This document shows positions 54,294 to 63,630 of a stretch of 64,000 nt of DNA, piece after piece (position 1 is the stretch's first letter; each line of letters begins with the position of its first letter). The stretch is from Oscillospiraceae bacterium. Lineage in GTDB: Bacteria; Bacillota; Clostridia; Oscillospirales; Ruminococcaceae. The notes beneath the pieces were generated by a model. It searched no databases and was not told where the DNA came from. It saw only the letters and a program-made list of their open reading frames with translations. The stretch is from the NCBI GenBank assembly GCA_017481565.1, contig JAFUOZ010000019.1:1-64000 (forward strand). Reading direction: 5' to 3'. A program made the position numbers and the translations under genes.

Positions 54294-55301
54294 ATGGCTG
54301 ACGTACTGTCGCAGCAGCAGATCGATGAACTGCTGAACAGCTTCAGCGCACAGGGCACAAAAGCATTCGAGGAAATAGAAGAAGAAAAGAACGACAAAAA
54401 AATCAAGAATTATGACTTTAAGATGCCTAAGAAATTCACTAAGGAAAAGCTTAAGGTCATTGACAGTATCTTTGAAAGCTATGCACGAGTGCTTTCCTCA
54501 TACCTTACAGGTCTTATGAGAATATACTGCAAGGTTGAGGTGCTCCAGATCGAGGAGCAGCGGTATTATGAATTCAATAACGCTCTTCCCGATTATGTTA
54601 TAATGGCGCTGGTCAATATGGGGATCTCCGATGAGGATATTCTCGAAACGGTTGGAATTTTACAGATCTCCAATCCCATTACCTTTACGATTATGGACAG
54701 ACTCATGGGCGGCGGCGGATTGTATTCCGAAGTCAACCGTGACTTTACAGAAATTGAAGTCGGTCTTATGACCAATGTACTTACCAAAATGGCGTCCCTT
54801 TTCAAGGAACCCTGGGGACAGTATATAGATCTTGACCCTGCACTTACAAAAATTGAGACAAATTCCCGAGTTATGCAGTCCATGCCCCCCGATGAAGTTA
54901 TTATTCTGGGCATGCTTGAAATTGAGATCAAGGATATCAAGAATACTATGTCAATATGTATTCCTGCTATGAACCTTGAATCTATGATGAACAAATTCGG
55001 TGACAGATGGTCCAGAAGCACAAAGCGTATGGATCAGGCAAGGGAAAACGAACGGAGACAGGGAATTCTTGAAAATCTTAAGGATTCTACCCTTGATATC
55101 AAGGCTGTTCTCTGCGATACACAGGTCGATCTGTATGACATTCTCACTCTTCAGGTTGATGATGTTATACCGCTTAATATGCCTATTGAAGACAATATAT
55201 CCGTCAGGATCGGTAATAATAAATGGTTTGACGGTAAGCTTGGCGTTATGAACAGTAAAAAGGCTATTAAAATAGATAATATTTACAAGGAATTGAGGTA
55301 A
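54294..55301 (+). CDS. fliM: Flagellar motor switch protein FliM
   Basis: A 335-residue C-ring protein. Its N-terminal CheY-P-binding motif is LSQQQIDELLNSF, followed by a CheC-like middle domain (including GGGGLYSEVNRDFTEIE) and a C-terminal SpoA domain (LQVDDVIPLNMPIEDNISVR). Binding of CheY-P switches or biases rotation. It follows motB directly; no fliL lies between them. AGGGTGAAACG precedes the ATG. Confidence 0.97.
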   Translation: MADVLSQQQIDELLNSFSAQGTKAFEEIEEEKNDKKIKNYDFKMPKKFTKEKLKVIDSIFESYARVLSSYLTGLMRIYCKVEVLQIEEQRYYEFNNALPDYVIMALVNMGISDEDILETVGILQISNPITFTIMDRLMGGGGLYSEVNRDFTEIEVGLMTNVLTKMASLFKEPWGQYIDLDPALTKIETNSRVMQSMPPDEVIILGMLEIEIKDIKNTMSICIPAMNLESMMNKFGDRWSRSTKRMDQARENERRQGILENLKDSTLDIKAVLCDTQVDLYDILTLQVDDVIPLNMPIEDNISVRIGNNKWFDGKLGVMNSKKAIKIDNIYKELR

Positions 55302-55309
55302 GGTAGATA

Positions 55310-56689
55310 ATGAGCGACGAAAACGTTATGCTTAGTGGATTCGGCGATCTGGAAAAGGACGCCATTGGTGAAGTAATGAATATCACCATGGGTTCTGCAG
55401 CCACTGCCGTATCCAATATGCTCAGCGCAAAGGTCTGGATCACTACTCCCCAGGTCAGCGTTGTTAAATCAGGCGACCTCAGCTATCCTGAGCTGGAGCC
55501 GTCCATAAGAGTAAAAATCGAATATACAATGGGCGTTGAGGGACAGAATGTTCTCATTCTCAAGCAGAATGACGTTCAGCTTATTCTTAATCAGCTTATG
55601 GGACTTCCCCTTGAGGTCACAGATGATTTTGAATTCGATGAAATGAACATCTCCGCTGTCTGCGAGGTAATGAATCAGATGATGGGTGCTTCCGCAACAG
55701 CTCTCTCCGAGCTTATTGATACCCCCATTGATATTTCAACTCCTCAGGCAACAGTAAGAAACAGCGATGATGAAGGTGCAATATATTCCGATGACGCTGA
55801 TGAATATGTAGTTCAGGTAAAGTTTAACCTTACTATTGACGGTGTTATCAATTCCGAGTTCATGTCGGTGCTTTCTATCGGACTTGCAAAGGAAATGGCT
55901 TCAAAGATGCTGGCAGGCTACAATGCAGCCGAGCCCGATCCCGCACCTGCTGCAAGCGGCGGCGATATGATGAGTCAGGACGATATTGCAGCACTTTTAA
56001 ACGGCGCAGGCTCAGGCATGATGCCCGAACAGCCGGCAGCTCCTGCTCCTTCCTCGGGAGGAACAATGAGCCAGGACGAAATAAATGCTCTGCTTAACGG
56101 CGGCGGTGCAGCTGCACCTGCTCCTGCTCCTATGGCAGCAGCTCCTCAGGCGGATCCCAATATGGCAATGGCTCAGGGACAGGCTATGATGGGTATGGCT
56201 CCTCAGGGTCAGCCTATGATGCAGCAGCCGATGATGAACGGACAGCCCTACGGTATGCCTATGCAGCAGCCGATGATGAACGGACAGCCTTACGGTATGC
56301 CTATGCAGGGTATGTATGGTTATCCTCAGGGTGCAATGGCTCCTCAGAGACCACCCGTAAATGTACAGGCGGTACAGCTTCAGAGCTTTGATACATATAA
56401 TAATAAGACTCTCAGCGAGGAACAGAATGACAACCTTAAGCTTCTTATGGGAGTTCCTCTGGATGTAACCGTAGAGATCGGTTCGACCAAGAGAAAGATC
56501 AAGGATATCCTTGAATTTACTCAGGGTACGATCATTGAGCTTGAACGTCAGGCAGGCGCACCTGTTGACGTTATAGTAAACGGTCATCTGATAGCAAAGG
56601 GCGACGTTGTTGTTATCGACGATAACTTTGCAGTCAGAATAACCGAAATAATCAGATCCAAATTTTTAGATAATTTAGGTAAGGAGTAA
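55310..56689 (+). CDS. fliY: Flagellar motor switch phosphatase FliY (CheC-FliN fusion)
   Basis: A 459-residue FliY. Residues ~1-205 are a CheC-like CheY-P phosphatase with both active sites intact (two EVMN helices, each leading to a TTP/STP proline). A ~150-residue linker holds two motifs resembling the FliM CheY-binding peptide, [12 protein letters not shown] (~221) and [12 protein letters not shown] (~253), then a Gln/Met/Pro-rich stretch with a 14-residue tandem repeat. Residues ~370-459 are the FliN SpoA domain ([14 protein letters not shown]). It starts eight bases after fliM and precedes cheY. Confidence 0.96.
56222..56305 (+). repeat. 42-bp tandem repeat in the fliY linker
   Basis: Two back-to-back 42-bp units (56222-56263 and 56264-56305) differing at one base, each encoding [14 protein letters not shown]. 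In-frame expansion or contraction would change linker length without breaking the protein. Confidence 0.9.
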
Positions 56690-56695
56690 TGGACA

Positions 56696-57058
56696 ATGGA
56701 TAAGAAGATTTTACTTGTGGATGACGCTGCTTTCATGAGAATGATGATCAAGGACGCTCTCACAAAGAACGGCTATACTAACATTATTGAGGCGGCAGAC
56801 GGCGAAATTGCCTGCAATACCTATGCCTCTGAAAAGCCCGACCTGGTTATTATGGATATCACAATGCCCAATAAGACAGGTATCGAGGCACTCCGTGATA
56901 TCAAGAAGTCTGATCCCGGTGCAAAGATAGTAATGTGCTCCGCTATGGGTCAGGAAGCAATGGTTGTCGAGGCTATCAAGCTTGGTGCGCTTGACTTTAT
57001 CGTTAAGCCCTTTAAGCCTGACAGAATCATTCAGACTGTTCAGAAGATAATCGGCTAA
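56696..57058 (+). CDS. cheY: Chemotaxis response regulator CheY
   Basis: A 120-residue single receiver domain: KILLVDDAAFMRMMIKDAL (acidic pair), phosphorylated Asp in DLVIMDITMPNKTG, and the switch Ser/Lys in VMCSAMGQ and FIVKPFKP. Phospho-CheY binds FliM and, by inference, the FliY linker motifs. It sits six bases after fliY. The kinase CheA is not in this window. Confidence 0.97.
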   Translation: MDKKILLVDDAAFMRMMIKDALTKNGYTNIIEAADGEIACNTYASEKPDLVIMDITMPNKTGIEALRDIKKSDPGAKIVMCSAMGQEAMVVEAIKLGALDFIVKPFKPDRIIQTVQKIIG

Positions 57059-57195: not shown

Positions 57196-57567
57196 ATGCA
57201 GGAAATAATCACTATTCTGATATCACTTATAGCAGTTATCGGTATCATGGTACTTTCAATGTTTGGCTTGAAAAAGCTGATGAAGAAATTCAATTTTCAG
57301 AATCAGTTCGGAAGCGGCATGAAGATAATCAGCTGTATGGGGATAGGTCAGGATAAGTCCTTAGCTGCAGTCAGTGTAGGGACAAAAAAGCTTCTTTTAG
57401 GCATAACCGCAACGGAAATAAAGGTGCTTACCGAGCTTTCCGATGAGGATATTGAAATGCTTATGCCTCCCGAACAGGCACAGCCCGACGGCAGAAGCTT
57501 TGCTGAAATTTTGGCTGAAAATATGAAGAATACCTTCGGCGGCAATAAAAAAGGCGGTAGTAAGTAA
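57196..57567 (+). CDS. fliO: Flagellar biosynthesis protein FliO (FliZ-type)
   Basis: A 123-residue protein with one N-terminal membrane helix (ITILISLIAVIGIMVLSMFG) and a small cytoplasmic FliO domain (CMGIGQDKSLAAVSVGTKKL). FliO helps assemble the FliP ring of the export gate. Its stop overlaps the fliP start (TAATG). Position directly before fliP supports the call. Confidence 0.92.
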   Translation: MQEIITILISLIAVIGIMVLSMFGLKKLMKKFNFQNQFGSGMKIISCMGIGQDKSLAAVSVGTKKLLLGITATEIKVLTELSDEDIEMLMPPEQAQPDGRSFAEILAENMKNTFGGNKKGGSK

Positions 57568-60731: not shown

Positions 60732-62807
60732 TTGAATTTTAATCCGAAAAAATTTTTAACTGACAATTTCGTTACGGTATTCGTAATCCTTGCAGTATTC
60801 CTTATCATTATCCCACTTCCTGTGTGGATACTTGATGCAATGTTTGCTTTGAATATTGCAATTTCTATTCTGATACTTCTTATTACAATGAATATAAAGG
60901 AGTCGCTGGAATTTTCCATATTCCCATCGCTGCTCCTTATCACAACCATTTTCCGACTGGGTCTTAACATTTCTTCAACAAGATCCATTCTTTCAAACGC
61001 AGGTGATGCGGGTGCTATTATCGAGGCATTCGGTACCTTCGTTATGCAGGGTAACGCCCTGGTCGGATTTGTAGTATTCATACTTATTACAGTCGTTCAG
61101 ATGACCGTTATTACAAAGGGTGCGGAAAGAGTTGCGGAAGTTACCGCAAGATTTACTCTGGACGCTATGCCCGGTAAGCAGATGGCTATTGATGCCGATC
61201 TTAATCAGGGAATGATCGATGATGCAGAAGCAAAGCGACGCAGAAACAACATTCAGCGTGAAGCAGACTTCTTCGGAGCTATGGACGGTGCTGCCAAGTT
61301 CGTAAAGGGAGACGCAACATTCTCTCTTATTGCTGCAGGTGTAAACCTTCTGGGCGGTGCTGTCATGGGTCTTGTATTTGAGGGCATGGATTTTATGACT
61401 GTCCTTAATACATACGCTATTGCGACAGTCGGTGACGGTCTTTGTTCACAGGTTCCTTCACTTTGTATTTCGGTATCAATGGGTATGATCGTAACAAGAG
61501 CGGCTTCCGAGGAATCCCTCAATGCCGATGTTACGGGACAGTTCACCGCACAGCCCAAGGCACTTCAGATAGGCGGCGTTGTAATTATTGCAATGATGCT
61601 TATCCCCGGCTTCCCCAAGCTTCAGCTTATCGTTATCGGTGCTGCACTTGTTGCGCTTGGTAATCTTATGGCGAAGAAGATCACTACCGCAGATACCACT
61701 GTTGAAGAACAGCAGAAGGAAATGGCGGAAAACAAGGAAGCACTTTCCGAAATGGAATACTACAAGAATATCGACAATGTATATAAGCTGCTGAATGTTG
61801 AGCCTATTGAAATGGAATTCGGTTATTCTCTTATTCCGCTGGCAGACGAATCGGCAGGCGGAACGCTTATCGAGCGTGTAGTTATTTTCAGAAAACAATT
61901 TGCACTGGAAATGGGTATGGTTTTCCCATCTATCAGAATGAGGGATAATCAGCATATCAACCCTAACCAGTATATAATCAAAATGAGAGGCGAGGTCATC
62001 GCTCAGGCGGAGATCCTTATGGACCATTACCTTGCCCTTGACAGCGGAAGTGTTACCAGAGAGATAGACGGTATTGATACTATCGAGCCGGCATTCCAGA
62101 TCCCAGCAAAATGGATATCCAACGAAAACAAGATCGCTGCGGAAATTGCGGGATATACACTTATCGACCCTACATCTGTAATGATAACTCATCTTTCAGA
62201 GGTAATCAAGAATCATGCCCATGAGCTGCTTTCCAGACAGGATGTAAAGACCATGCTGGAAAAGCTCAAGGAAACAAATCCTACTATTGTAGAGGATACT
62301 GTTCCCAATATCGTTTCAGTGGCATATCTGCAGAAGGAGCTTTGTATGCTTCTCAGAGAAAATATTCCTATCAGGGATCTGCAGACTATTCTGGAGACCC
62401 TTGCGGATAATCAGGGCAATATGAAGGATATGGATATTACCAATGAATATGTGCGTCAGGCGCTTAAGAGAACTATAACTCATCGTTTTGCAGACGCAGG
62501 ACAGATCAGAGTTCTTACTCTCGATGCCGAAACGGAAAACAAGATAGTTGCTTCCGTAAAAAAATCCGAGCAGGGCTCGTACCTTGCAATGGAGCCGCAG
62601 GCTATCCAGAGTCTTATTGCCGCACTCAATGAGCAGATCGAGATCGTTAAGGACGTTATCCCGACTCCGATCGTGCTTACATCGCCCATTGTACGTATCT
62701 ACTTCAAGAAGATGATAGATCAGTTTATGCCTAACATTACCGTTTTAAGCTTTAATGAGATAGATAATTCGGTACAGATACAGGCAGTCGGAAATATTGC
62801 TATATAG
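60732..62807 (+). CDS. flhA: Flagellar export protein FlhA
   Basis: A 691-residue protein forming the nonameric export ring. Eight membrane helices span residues ~15-310, enclosing the conserved cytoplasmic loop MPGKQMAIDADLNQGMIDD and following RR motif. The C-terminal domain (~350-691) binds chaperone-substrate complexes. The start is TTG 13 bases after AAGGAGG, an unusually long spacing. In Bacillus flhF and flhG follow flhA; here the sigma factor gene follows directly. Confidence 0.98.
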   Translation: MNFNPKKFLTDNFVTVFVILAVFLIIIPLPVWILDAMFALNIAISILILLITMNIKESLEFSIFPSLLLITTIFRLGLNISSTRSILSNAGDAGAIIEAFGTFVMQGNALVGFVVFILITVVQMTVITKGAERVAEVTARFTLDAMPGKQMAIDADLNQGMIDDAEAKRRRNNIQREADFFGAMDGAAKFVKGDATFSLIAAGVNLLGGAVMGLVFEGMDFMTVLNTYAIATVGDGLCSQVPSLCISVSMGMIVTRAASEESLNADVTGQFTAQPKALQIGGVVIIAMMLIPGFPKLQLIVIGAALVALGNLMAKKITTADTTVEEQQKEMAENKEALSEMEYYKNIDNVYKLLNVEPIEMEFGYSLIPLADESAGGTLIERVVIFRKQFALEMGMVFPSIRMRDNQHINPNQYIIKMRGEVIAQAEILMDHYLALDSGSVTREIDGIDTIEPAFQIPAKWISNENKIAAEIAGYTLIDPTSVMITHLSEVIKNHAHELLSRQDVKTMLEKLKETNPTIVEDTVPNIVSVAYLQKELCMLLRENIPIRDLQTILETLADNQGNMKDMDITNEYVRQALKRTITHRFADAGQIRVLTLDAETENKIVASVKKSEQGSYLAMEPQAIQSLIAALNEQIEIVKDVIPTPIVLTSPIVRIYFKKMIDQFMPNITVLSFNEIDNSVQIQAVGNIAI

Positions 62808-62853
62808 CAATTTGCTATATAAAGCAATACAACTGTGACAGGAGGTGAAGCTG

Positions 62854-63630
62854 ATGCATGAAGCCGTAAGGGAAACGGAAGAATTATCCGCCGAATCCTT
62901 ATTTGCAGCCTACAGAATTTCGGGAAGTGCGGAAATACGCAATAAAATAGTTCTCAGGTTTATGAATATCGTCAATTATGCGGCAATATCCACAAGAAAT
63001 ATGTATCAGAAGTTCGCCGAGGCTGAGGATATCGTAAACGAGGCTACCATTGCTCTTATGAAAGCGGTGGACAGCTATAATCCCGATAAAAATACAAAGT
63101 TTGAGACATATGCGTCTATCAGAGTAAGAGGTGCGGTAATAGATTTTATACGCCGACAGGATATGCTCCCCCGTAATGTGCGCAAGTTTGCACAGGAATA
63201 TGACAAGGCATACGGAATACTCTATTCAAGGCTGGACAGAGAGCCTACTCCTCAGGAAATGGCTGATGAAATGGGGATAACCCTTGAACGTCTTGAAAGC
63301 TATACCGTAAAGGCGGCATCGGCACAGGTACTCTCCTTTGAAGAAATGGTCTTTGAAAACGGCTATGACCTTCCCGATGGTACGGTGACCTCGCCTACAG
63401 CAGGCTGGGAGCCTGAAAAAAATCTTCTCAAGGACGAAATGAAGGAATATCTTGCCGCCGCTATAGATAAGCTTACCGAAAAGGAACGGCTTGTGGTGAC
63501 GCTTTATTACTATGAAAAGCTTAAATATTCGGAAATCGCTCAGGTAATGGATATTTCCGAATCAAGAGTCTGCCAGCTTAATTCGGCGGCAGTCATAAAG
63601 ATGAAAAAGCATCTTAAGGACTATCTGTAA
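62854..63630 (+). CDS. fliA: Flagellar sigma factor (sigma28, FliA/SigD/WhiG type)
   Basis: A 258-residue sigma-70-family factor lacking region 1. Region 2 has AEDIVNEATIALMKAVDSYN and FETYASIRVRGAVIDFIRRQ; region 3 has REPTPQEMADEMGI; region 4 has LTEKERLVVTLYYYEKLKYS and the helix-turn-helix MDISESRVCQLNSAAV. It directs late flagellar and chemotaxis genes. The ATG at 62854 lies eight bases from AGGAGG; an in-frame GTG nine bases earlier is inside that ribosome site. Confidence 0.95.
   Translation: MHEAVRETEELSAESLFAAYRISGSAEIRNKIVLRFMNIVNYAAISTRNMYQKFAEAEDIVNEATIALMKAVDSYNPDKNTKFETYASIRVRGAVIDFIRRQDMLPRNVRKFAQEYDKAYGILYSRLDREPTPQEMADEMGITLERLESYTVKAASAQVLSFEEMVFENGYDLPDGTVTSPTAGWEPEKNLLKDEMKEYLAAAIDKLTEKERLVVTLYYYEKLKYSEIAQVMDISESRVCQLNSAAVIKMKKHLKDYL

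What the first reader, a model, noticed from the sequence alone, without database searches (positions are those of the whole stretch)
55960..56305. FliY with two CheY-binding-like motifs in its linker plus a tandem repeat
[12 protein letters not shown] and [12 protein letters not shown] mirror the FliM N-terminal motif LSQQQIDELLNS and lie 34 residues apart between the phosphatase and FliN domains. Bacillus FliY has a single such motif at its N-terminus. Together with FliM this gives three possible CheY-P sites per FliM-FliY pair, which could sharpen the switch or concentrate CheY-P near the phosphatase. The adjacent 42-bp repeat could tune linker length.
Basis: partly seen in the sequence, partly recalled or inferred. 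Interest (0 to 1): 0.62.

Follow-up and report, generated by a model that had tools for sequence, protein, structure and literature searches.

The report
Flagellar FliY with two relocated CheY-binding-like motifs
In this gut bacterium's flagellar switch, the short peptide that FliM-type proteins normally carry at their front end to catch the signal protein CheY-P appears twice inside the flexible middle of the phosphatase FliY; the arrangement recurs in dozens of related species and occurs almost only where the assembly factor FlhG, which uses FliY's front end, is missing.

Summary
Confirmed. FliY (55310-56689) has two FliM-type motifs, [12 protein letters not shown] (residues 221-232) and [12 protein letters not shown] (253-264), in its linker between an intact two-site CheC phosphatase and the FliN domain. 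They are 32, not 34, residues apart. The 42-bp repeat is real but species-specific.
It is a lineage trait. Of 164 FliYs in the first survey, 53 carry one motif at the N-terminus, 69 carry 1-4 in the linker, 42 none, none both. A wider sample gave one FliY with both and one with three N-terminal copies. The motifs are far better conserved than the linker around them.
Linker motifs occur where FlhG is absent. The N-terminal motif is in 113 of 115 FlhG+ genomes but 9 of 55 FlhG- ones. FlhG binds FliY's N-terminal 36 residues in published work. The window genome lacks FlhF and FlhG, so FlhG docking is unlikely here. The association rests on about six independent contrasts and is not statistically secure.
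Best reading: relocated, multiplied CheY-P docking peptides feeding the adjacent phosphatase. CheY binding is inferred; an AlphaFold test with tethered CheY gave no support. Motif-free relatives exist, so the motifs are not essential. New variant of a known kind.

The parts
55310..56689 (+). fliY: flagellar motor switch phosphatase FliY (CheC - linker - FliN), without an N-terminal EIDAL motif
   Evidence: NCBIfam NF005995 over cut-off (319.8 vs 218), match starting at model position 33; Pfam CheC + FliMN_C; Foldseek top hit T. maritima FliY 4HYN
55358..55450 (+). CheC active site 1: D17-x3-E21-x2-N24-x22-P47
   Evidence: pattern match; intact in 77/77 linker-motif FliYs
55652..55744 (+). CheC active site 2: S115-x3-E119-x2-N122-x22-P145
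   Evidence: pattern match
55925..56374 (+). 150-residue Pro/Ala/Gln/Met-rich linker, predicted disordered except for the two motifs
   Evidence: AF2: most of 211-365 under pLDDT 50; only helices are 223-231 and 255-262
55970..56005 (+). motif 1, [12 protein letters not shown] (residues 221-232)
56066..56101 (+). motif 2, [12 protein letters not shown] (residues 253-264)
   Evidence: differs only by L->M at its first residue from the N-terminal FliY motifs of L184 and L187
56219..56308 (+). 42-bp tandem repeat, 2.1 copies, 14-aa unit [14 protein letters not shown]; not conserved in congeners
   Evidence: TRF; alignments
56375..56686 (+). FliN (SPOA) domain of FliY
   Evidence: Pfam FliMN_C 378-448; TIGR02480 over cut-off
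54294..55301 (+). fliM, retaining the N-terminal motif LSQQQIDELLNS
   Evidence: TIGR01397 over cut-off
56696..57058 (+). cheY, directly downstream (presumed ligand)
   Evidence: Response_reg; closest solved structures are T. maritima CheY, including 4IGA
60732..63630 (+). flhA (60732-62807) followed directly by a FliA/WhiG-type sigma factor (62845-63630): flhF-flhG, which follow flhA in N-terminal-motif species, are absent here
   Evidence: genome-wide absence

Best explanation
The two linker peptides are displaced and multiplied copies of the FliM/FliY N-terminal CheY-binding motif. As FliY sits in the C-ring, its flexible linker presents two short amphipathic helices beside the two CheC active sites. 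CheY-P that reaches the ring is caught by FliM's N-terminus and by these helices and handed to the FliY phosphatase, so signal termination happens at the switch, with docking valency set by motif copy number (1-4 in relatives). In lineages with FlhG the motif stays at FliY's N-terminus, where FlhG also docks; this lineage lacks FlhF/FlhG, which would release that constraint. Shown: motifs, conservation, copy-number turnover, intact active sites, absence of FlhF/FlhG. Inferred: CheY-P binding, hand-off to the phosphatase, causal link to FlhG.
For: Motif residues match FliM's and N-terminal FliY's: S, Q and I nearly invariant in 134 linker motifs. Motif columns 82% vs other linker columns 37% pairwise identity among six close species. 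Window copies differ silently at 7 of 12 identical codons, i.e. an old, constrained pair. Two or more copies, mostly 25-46 residues apart, in 42 of 69 linker-type FliYs. Both CheC sites intact in 77/77 linker-type FliYs. cheY directly follows fliY in the window and most relatives; this CheY is closest to T. maritima CheY, which has been crystallised with the FliM N-terminus (4IGA; title cited in PMC6946799). FliM keeps its motif in these genomes. FlhG, the other known ligand of such N-termini, is absent. AF2 makes the two motifs the only helices of the linker.
Against: No binding data. Tethering CheY to FliY in AF2 did not raise motif confidence (residues 221-230: mean pLDDT 75 without CheY, 69 with; vs 56). 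The residue after Ile (D in FliM) is A or N in the window motifs and E in most linker motifs. 42 of 164 FliYs have no motif at all, including L024, a congener of a motif bearer. T. maritima FliY is reported to show no preference for activated CheY (PMC7355467). The FlhG link rests on few independent events.
Confidence: 0.55

Rival explanations
1. The motifs bind CheY-P mainly to raise its local concentration at FliM and sharpen or bias switching, not to feed the phosphatase.
For: FliM keeps its motif beside a multi-motif FliY; FliM-tethered CheY is thought to be passed to secondary sites on the ring (PMC7355467).
Against: All linker-type FliYs keep both phosphatase sites, and a phosphatase-linked tether would lower, not raise, CheY-P at the ring. 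CheY binding at the C-ring is reported as non-cooperative (PMC7355467).
Confidence: 0.13
2. The linker helices bind another partner or fold back on FliY's own CheC or FliN domain as a regulatory lid.
For: AF2 gives motif 1 a fairly confident helix without CheY (pLDDT 75).
Against: The motif is retained as a near-copy of the FliM N-terminal signature, and copy number varies 1-4, which a fixed intramolecular lid would not easily tolerate.
Confidence: 0.17
3. The motifs are FlhG docking sites for C-ring assembly, like the N-terminus of Bacillus FliY.
For: FlhG binds the FliY N-terminal 36 residues (PMC12327844).
Against: FlhF and FlhG are absent from the window genome and all members of its family tested, and from 44 of 44 linker-type or motif-free operons, but present in 15 of 15 N-terminal-type operons.
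Confidence: 0.03
4. The motif marks an internal translation start that makes a short FliN-like protein with an N-terminal motif, as in Spa33/YscQ and perhaps T. maritima FliY.
For: Motif 2 starts with ATG preceded by GGGAGGAACA in the window; internal initiation in T. maritima fliY is suggested (PMC4832279).
Against: At the first motif position, 78 of 134 codons are Leu, with TTG no commoner than elsewhere (6 of 78 vs 10%); SD-like sequence in only 32 of 134; congeners lack it.
Confidence: 0.04
5. Decaying relics of an old duplication with no present role.
For: Some relatives have lost all motifs.
Against: Conservation contrast 82% vs 37%, silent divergence between copies, repeated retention in distant clades.
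Confidence: 0.08

Closest known systems
Bacillus-type FliY (CheC-FliN with a single N-terminal EIDAL motif)
   Same: Same family, domains, phosphatase sites, fliM-fliY-cheY gene order; motif nearly identical
   Different: Motif absent from the N-terminus, present twice in the linker; no FlhF/FlhG in the genome
Thermotoga maritima FliY (4HYN)
   Same: Closest solved fold; CheC-FliN architecture
   Different: Comparison was by fold only; the motif content of T. maritima FliY was not examined here, and no linker motif is described in the papers read
FliM N-terminal CheY-binding peptide (FliM-N)
   Same: Same short helical motif (LSQ..ID.LL)
   Different: In FliM at the extreme N-terminus in front of the non-catalytic middle domain; here internal and behind a catalytic phosphatase domain
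[quoted passage not shown]
   Same: Recognises that EIDAL motifs occur outside FliM
   Different: 12 bacteria; linker copies, multiplicity and the FlhG association are not mentioned in the passages read

Membership tests
FliY (flagellar motor switch phosphatase) | CheC-type domain followed by FliN/SPOA domain; NCBIfam NF005995 over cut-off | tested here: met
FliY (flagellar motor switch phosphatase) | CheC active-site signature [DS]xxxExxNx22P, two copies | tested here: met
FliY (flagellar motor switch phosphatase) | fliM-fliY-cheY operon order | tested here: met
FliY (flagellar motor switch phosphatase) | Hydrolyses CheY-P | not testable with these tools
   needs biochemistry
Bacillus-type FliY | N-terminal EIDAL/CheY-binding motif | tested here: not met
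   FliY begins [21 protein letters not shown], no motif
FliM-type CheY-binding peptide | Sequence signature [LM]SQxxIxxLL, helical | tested here: met
FliM-type CheY-binding peptide | Acidic or amide residue after Ile (D in FliM) | tested here: inconclusive
   A in motif 1, N in motif 2; N also occurs in 16 of 53 N-terminal FliY motifs
FliM-type CheY-binding peptide | Docks on the CheY output face | tested here: inconclusive
   AF2 with tethered CheY: no CheY-dependent confidence gain; only pLDDT and secondary structure were available, no coordinates
FlhG-dependent FliY | FlhF/FlhG encoded in the genome | tested here: not met
   no FlhF over cut-off; best FlhG-profile hit 97 bits vs 236-531 in Clostridia bearers

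The most novel reading that the evidence does not exclude
FliY's N-terminal motif serves two masters, FlhG in assembly and CheY-P in signalling, and FlhG pins it at the N-terminus. Where FlhF/FlhG are missing, the motif moved into the FliY linker and multiplied into a tunable multivalent CheY-P docking array beside a phosphatase, so loss of FlhG uncoupled ring assembly from chemotactic signal termination.
Probability: 0.3. Interest if true: 0.68.

Novelty: new variant of a known kind. Interest (0 to 1): 0.52.

Why it matters
It gives a natural copy-number series (0 to 4 CheY-binding-like motifs on one switch phosphatase) in otherwise comparable motors, useful for asking how docking valency shapes CheY-P turnover and switching. 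It also proposes a testable division of labour: the same peptide binds FlhG during assembly and CheY-P afterwards, and its place in FliY depends on whether FlhG exists. Many gut Clostridia carry this architecture, and it did not turn up in the papers I could search.

Tried and rejected
FlhG docking as the role of the linker motifs: rejected for this lineage. Internal translation start at the motif: rejected as a general explanation by start-codon and SD tallies. Chance match: rejected. Linker repeat tuning length: the 42-bp repeat is not conserved in congeners. AF2 test of CheY docking, using the in-frame fliY-TAA-cheY read-through as a tether: no support (vs 57); the tool returns no coordinates, so contacts could not be inspected. 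FliO 'LSDEDIEMLM' looked like another motif but is not conserved. The early result that N-terminal and linker motifs never co-occur (0 of 122 motif bearers) had to be softened: G693 has both and G589 has three N-terminal copies. The automatic calls for G805, G799, G688 and G608 were corrected by eye to N-terminal; G805 and G799 are degenerate (LNQEEIDLLM, LSPEEIDALL). G711, G595 and G791 were left out of the final tree and counts.

Full report
WHAT IS THERE. The window holds a Clostridia-type flagellar operon in the order fliM (54294-55301), fliY (55310-56689), cheY (56696-57058), fliO..., flhB, flhA, FliA/WhiG-type sigma factor. FliY is a bona fide switch phosphatase by NCBIfam NF005995 (319.8 bits, cut-off 218), with Pfam CheC and FliMN_C. 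Foldseek on the predicted model gives T. maritima FliY 4HYN first. Both CheC active-site signatures are intact: D17-E21-N24-P47 and S115-E119-N122-P145. The NCBIfam match starts at model position 33, i.e. the usual N-terminal stretch is missing. Inside the 150-residue linker lie [12 protein letters not shown] (221-232) and [12 protein letters not shown] (253-264), 32 residues apart. FliM retains LSQQQIDELLNS.

MORE THAN CHANCE. A PSSM built only from FliM N-termini scores the two motifs 13.8 and 19.5; shuffled linkers of 164 FliYs (200 rounds) reached 12.1 at most. In the window and its five nearest species motif columns are 82% identical pairwise and the rest of the linker 37%. Over 17 residues around each motif the two window copies share 12, and 7 of those 12 codons differ silently, so the pair is old and constrained. 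The DDIAALL/DEINALL distinction between motif 1 and motif 2 recurs in L109 (DDIAALL/DEINAML) and L006 (DEIAALL/DEINALL).

RELATED SEQUENCES. I collected 164 FliYs. By motif position: N-terminal 53, linker 69 (one copy 27, two 21, three 19, four 2), none 42, both 0. Successive linker copies are 25-46 residues apart (one 58). Linker length rises with copy number (medians 123, 163, 180 for 1, 2, 3). Many copies are recent tandem duplications (up to 100% DNA identity), others old (57-67%). On a tree of the CheC and FliN domains (linker left out) linker motifs occur in two separate groups, the window's own (records named Ruminococcus or Oscillospiraceae) and one of Oscillibacter/Intestinimonas/Mediterraneibacter-like genomes; N-terminal motifs form a third. 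The 'none' state is scattered, so loss is common; motif-free L024 and motif-bearing L020 are congeners. The second group includes records labelled Lachnospiraceae (e.g. Mediterraneibacter), which may reflect horizontal transfer of the operon; not tested.

FLHG. Published work shows that FlhG binds the N-terminal 36 residues of FliY, which are necessary and sufficient (PMC12327844), and describes an EIDAL element in Bacillus FliY (PMC12826062). I therefore asked whether motif place follows FlhG. In operons that reach past flhA, flhF and flhG are found in 15 of 15 N-terminal-type loci and in 0 of 44 linker-type or motif-free loci, the window included (one faint 45-bit FlhG-like hit elsewhere in the window is a ParA-type protein). 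Genome-wide in Clostridia the FlhG profile separates cleanly: 236 bits or more in bearers, 108 or less in the other genomes tabulated; FlhF by TIGR03499 agrees. The window genome (87% complete) and three congeners (91-98%) lack both. In 119 genomes with FliY from the class and the window's family, N-terminal motif: 74 of 74 FlhG+ vs 5 of 45 FlhG-. Adding other classes of the phylum (FlhG threshold E 1e-35), with hand-checked exceptions: 113 of 115 FlhG+ vs 9 of 55 FlhG-. All 18 linker-only FliYs in that set are in FlhG- genomes. Caveat: this is strongly structured by descent. Six independent contrasts on supported branches give agreement in 2.7 on average, disagreement in 0, no difference in 3.2, and cannot reach p 0.05 (3 contrasts). 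G428 has FlhF but no FlhG and its FliY has no motif, a hint that FlhG rather than FlhF matters. The direction of change is not resolved.

MECHANISM. FlhG being absent, the remaining known ligand of this peptide type is CheY(-P). This CheY is closest in sequence to T. maritima CheY, including the crystal with the FliM N-terminus (4IGA). All 77 linker-type FliYs keep both phosphatase sites. I therefore favour docking peptides that retain CheY-P beside the FliY active sites. AlphaFold makes the two motifs the only helices of the linker (223-231 and 255-262). Adding CheY as an in-frame tether did not raise motif confidence (motif 1 block pLDDT 75 without, 69 with; motif 2 block 52 vs 49), so docking has no computational support here. 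The test was a single-chain model without access to coordinates, and I count it as inconclusive to mildly negative.

ALTERNATIVES. FlhG docking fails for lack of FlhG. Internal initiation fails as a general account because the first codon is often CTT, CTC or TTA, although the window's motif 2 does have GGGAGGAACAATG. A switch-sharpening role or another ligand cannot be excluded. Motif-free relatives show that the motifs are not essential for keeping a flagellar operon.

NOVELTY. [quoted passage not shown] Linker placement, 1-4 copies, conservation and the link with FlhG were not found in the open-access library with the searches made. Sircar's FliY paper was not held and older subscription papers on CheC-type phosphatases could not be read, so prior mention cannot be excluded. 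Verdict: new variant of a known kind.

Noticed in passing
L282 (G589): FliY with three tandem N-terminal motifs (LSQEEIDALL, LSQEDIDAML, LSQEDIDAML, 27 residues apart) in an FlhG+ genome: motif multiplication at the N-terminus too.
   Followed up: partly
L340 (G693): The only FliY seen with both an N-terminal motif and a linker motif (LSQDEINNLL).
   Followed up: partly
L037, L284, L290: FliY-like proteins with two CheC domains in tandem; L284 and L290 lack any motif although FlhG is present.
   Followed up: no
L013, L025: An extra repeat ([LM][TS]QEEIEAE[IM]ARMRG) keeps the front of the motif but replaces its LL end; possibly a motif turned to another use.
   Followed up: no
L094 (G428): Genome with FlhF over the cut-off but no FlhG, and a FliY without any motif.
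   Followed up: partly
window 57436-57465 (FliO): LSDEDIEMLM in FliO resembles the motif but is not conserved in relatives.
   Followed up: yes
window 56056-56068: GGGAGGAACAATG directly at motif 2 looks like a ribosome-binding site and could start a 207-residue FliN-like product in this species; congeners lack it.
   Followed up: partly
window 56687-56698: fliY and cheY are in the same frame, separated only by TAA TGG ACA; similar 6-9 nt gaps in several relatives.
   Followed up: yes
window about 14479-36293: ParA/ParB-like, gidA/trmE-like and dnaA/dnaN/recF/gyrB/gyrA-like genes by eye: the replication-origin region lies next to the flagellar cluster.
   Followed up: no
L133, L136, L138, L161, L165: Records labelled Lachnospiraceae, Mediterraneibacter, Coprococcus or Blautia carry the FliY type without an N-terminal motif, and none of the operons that could be checked has flhF/flhG, unlike Roseburia-like relatives; possible transfer of the operon.
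   Followed up: no
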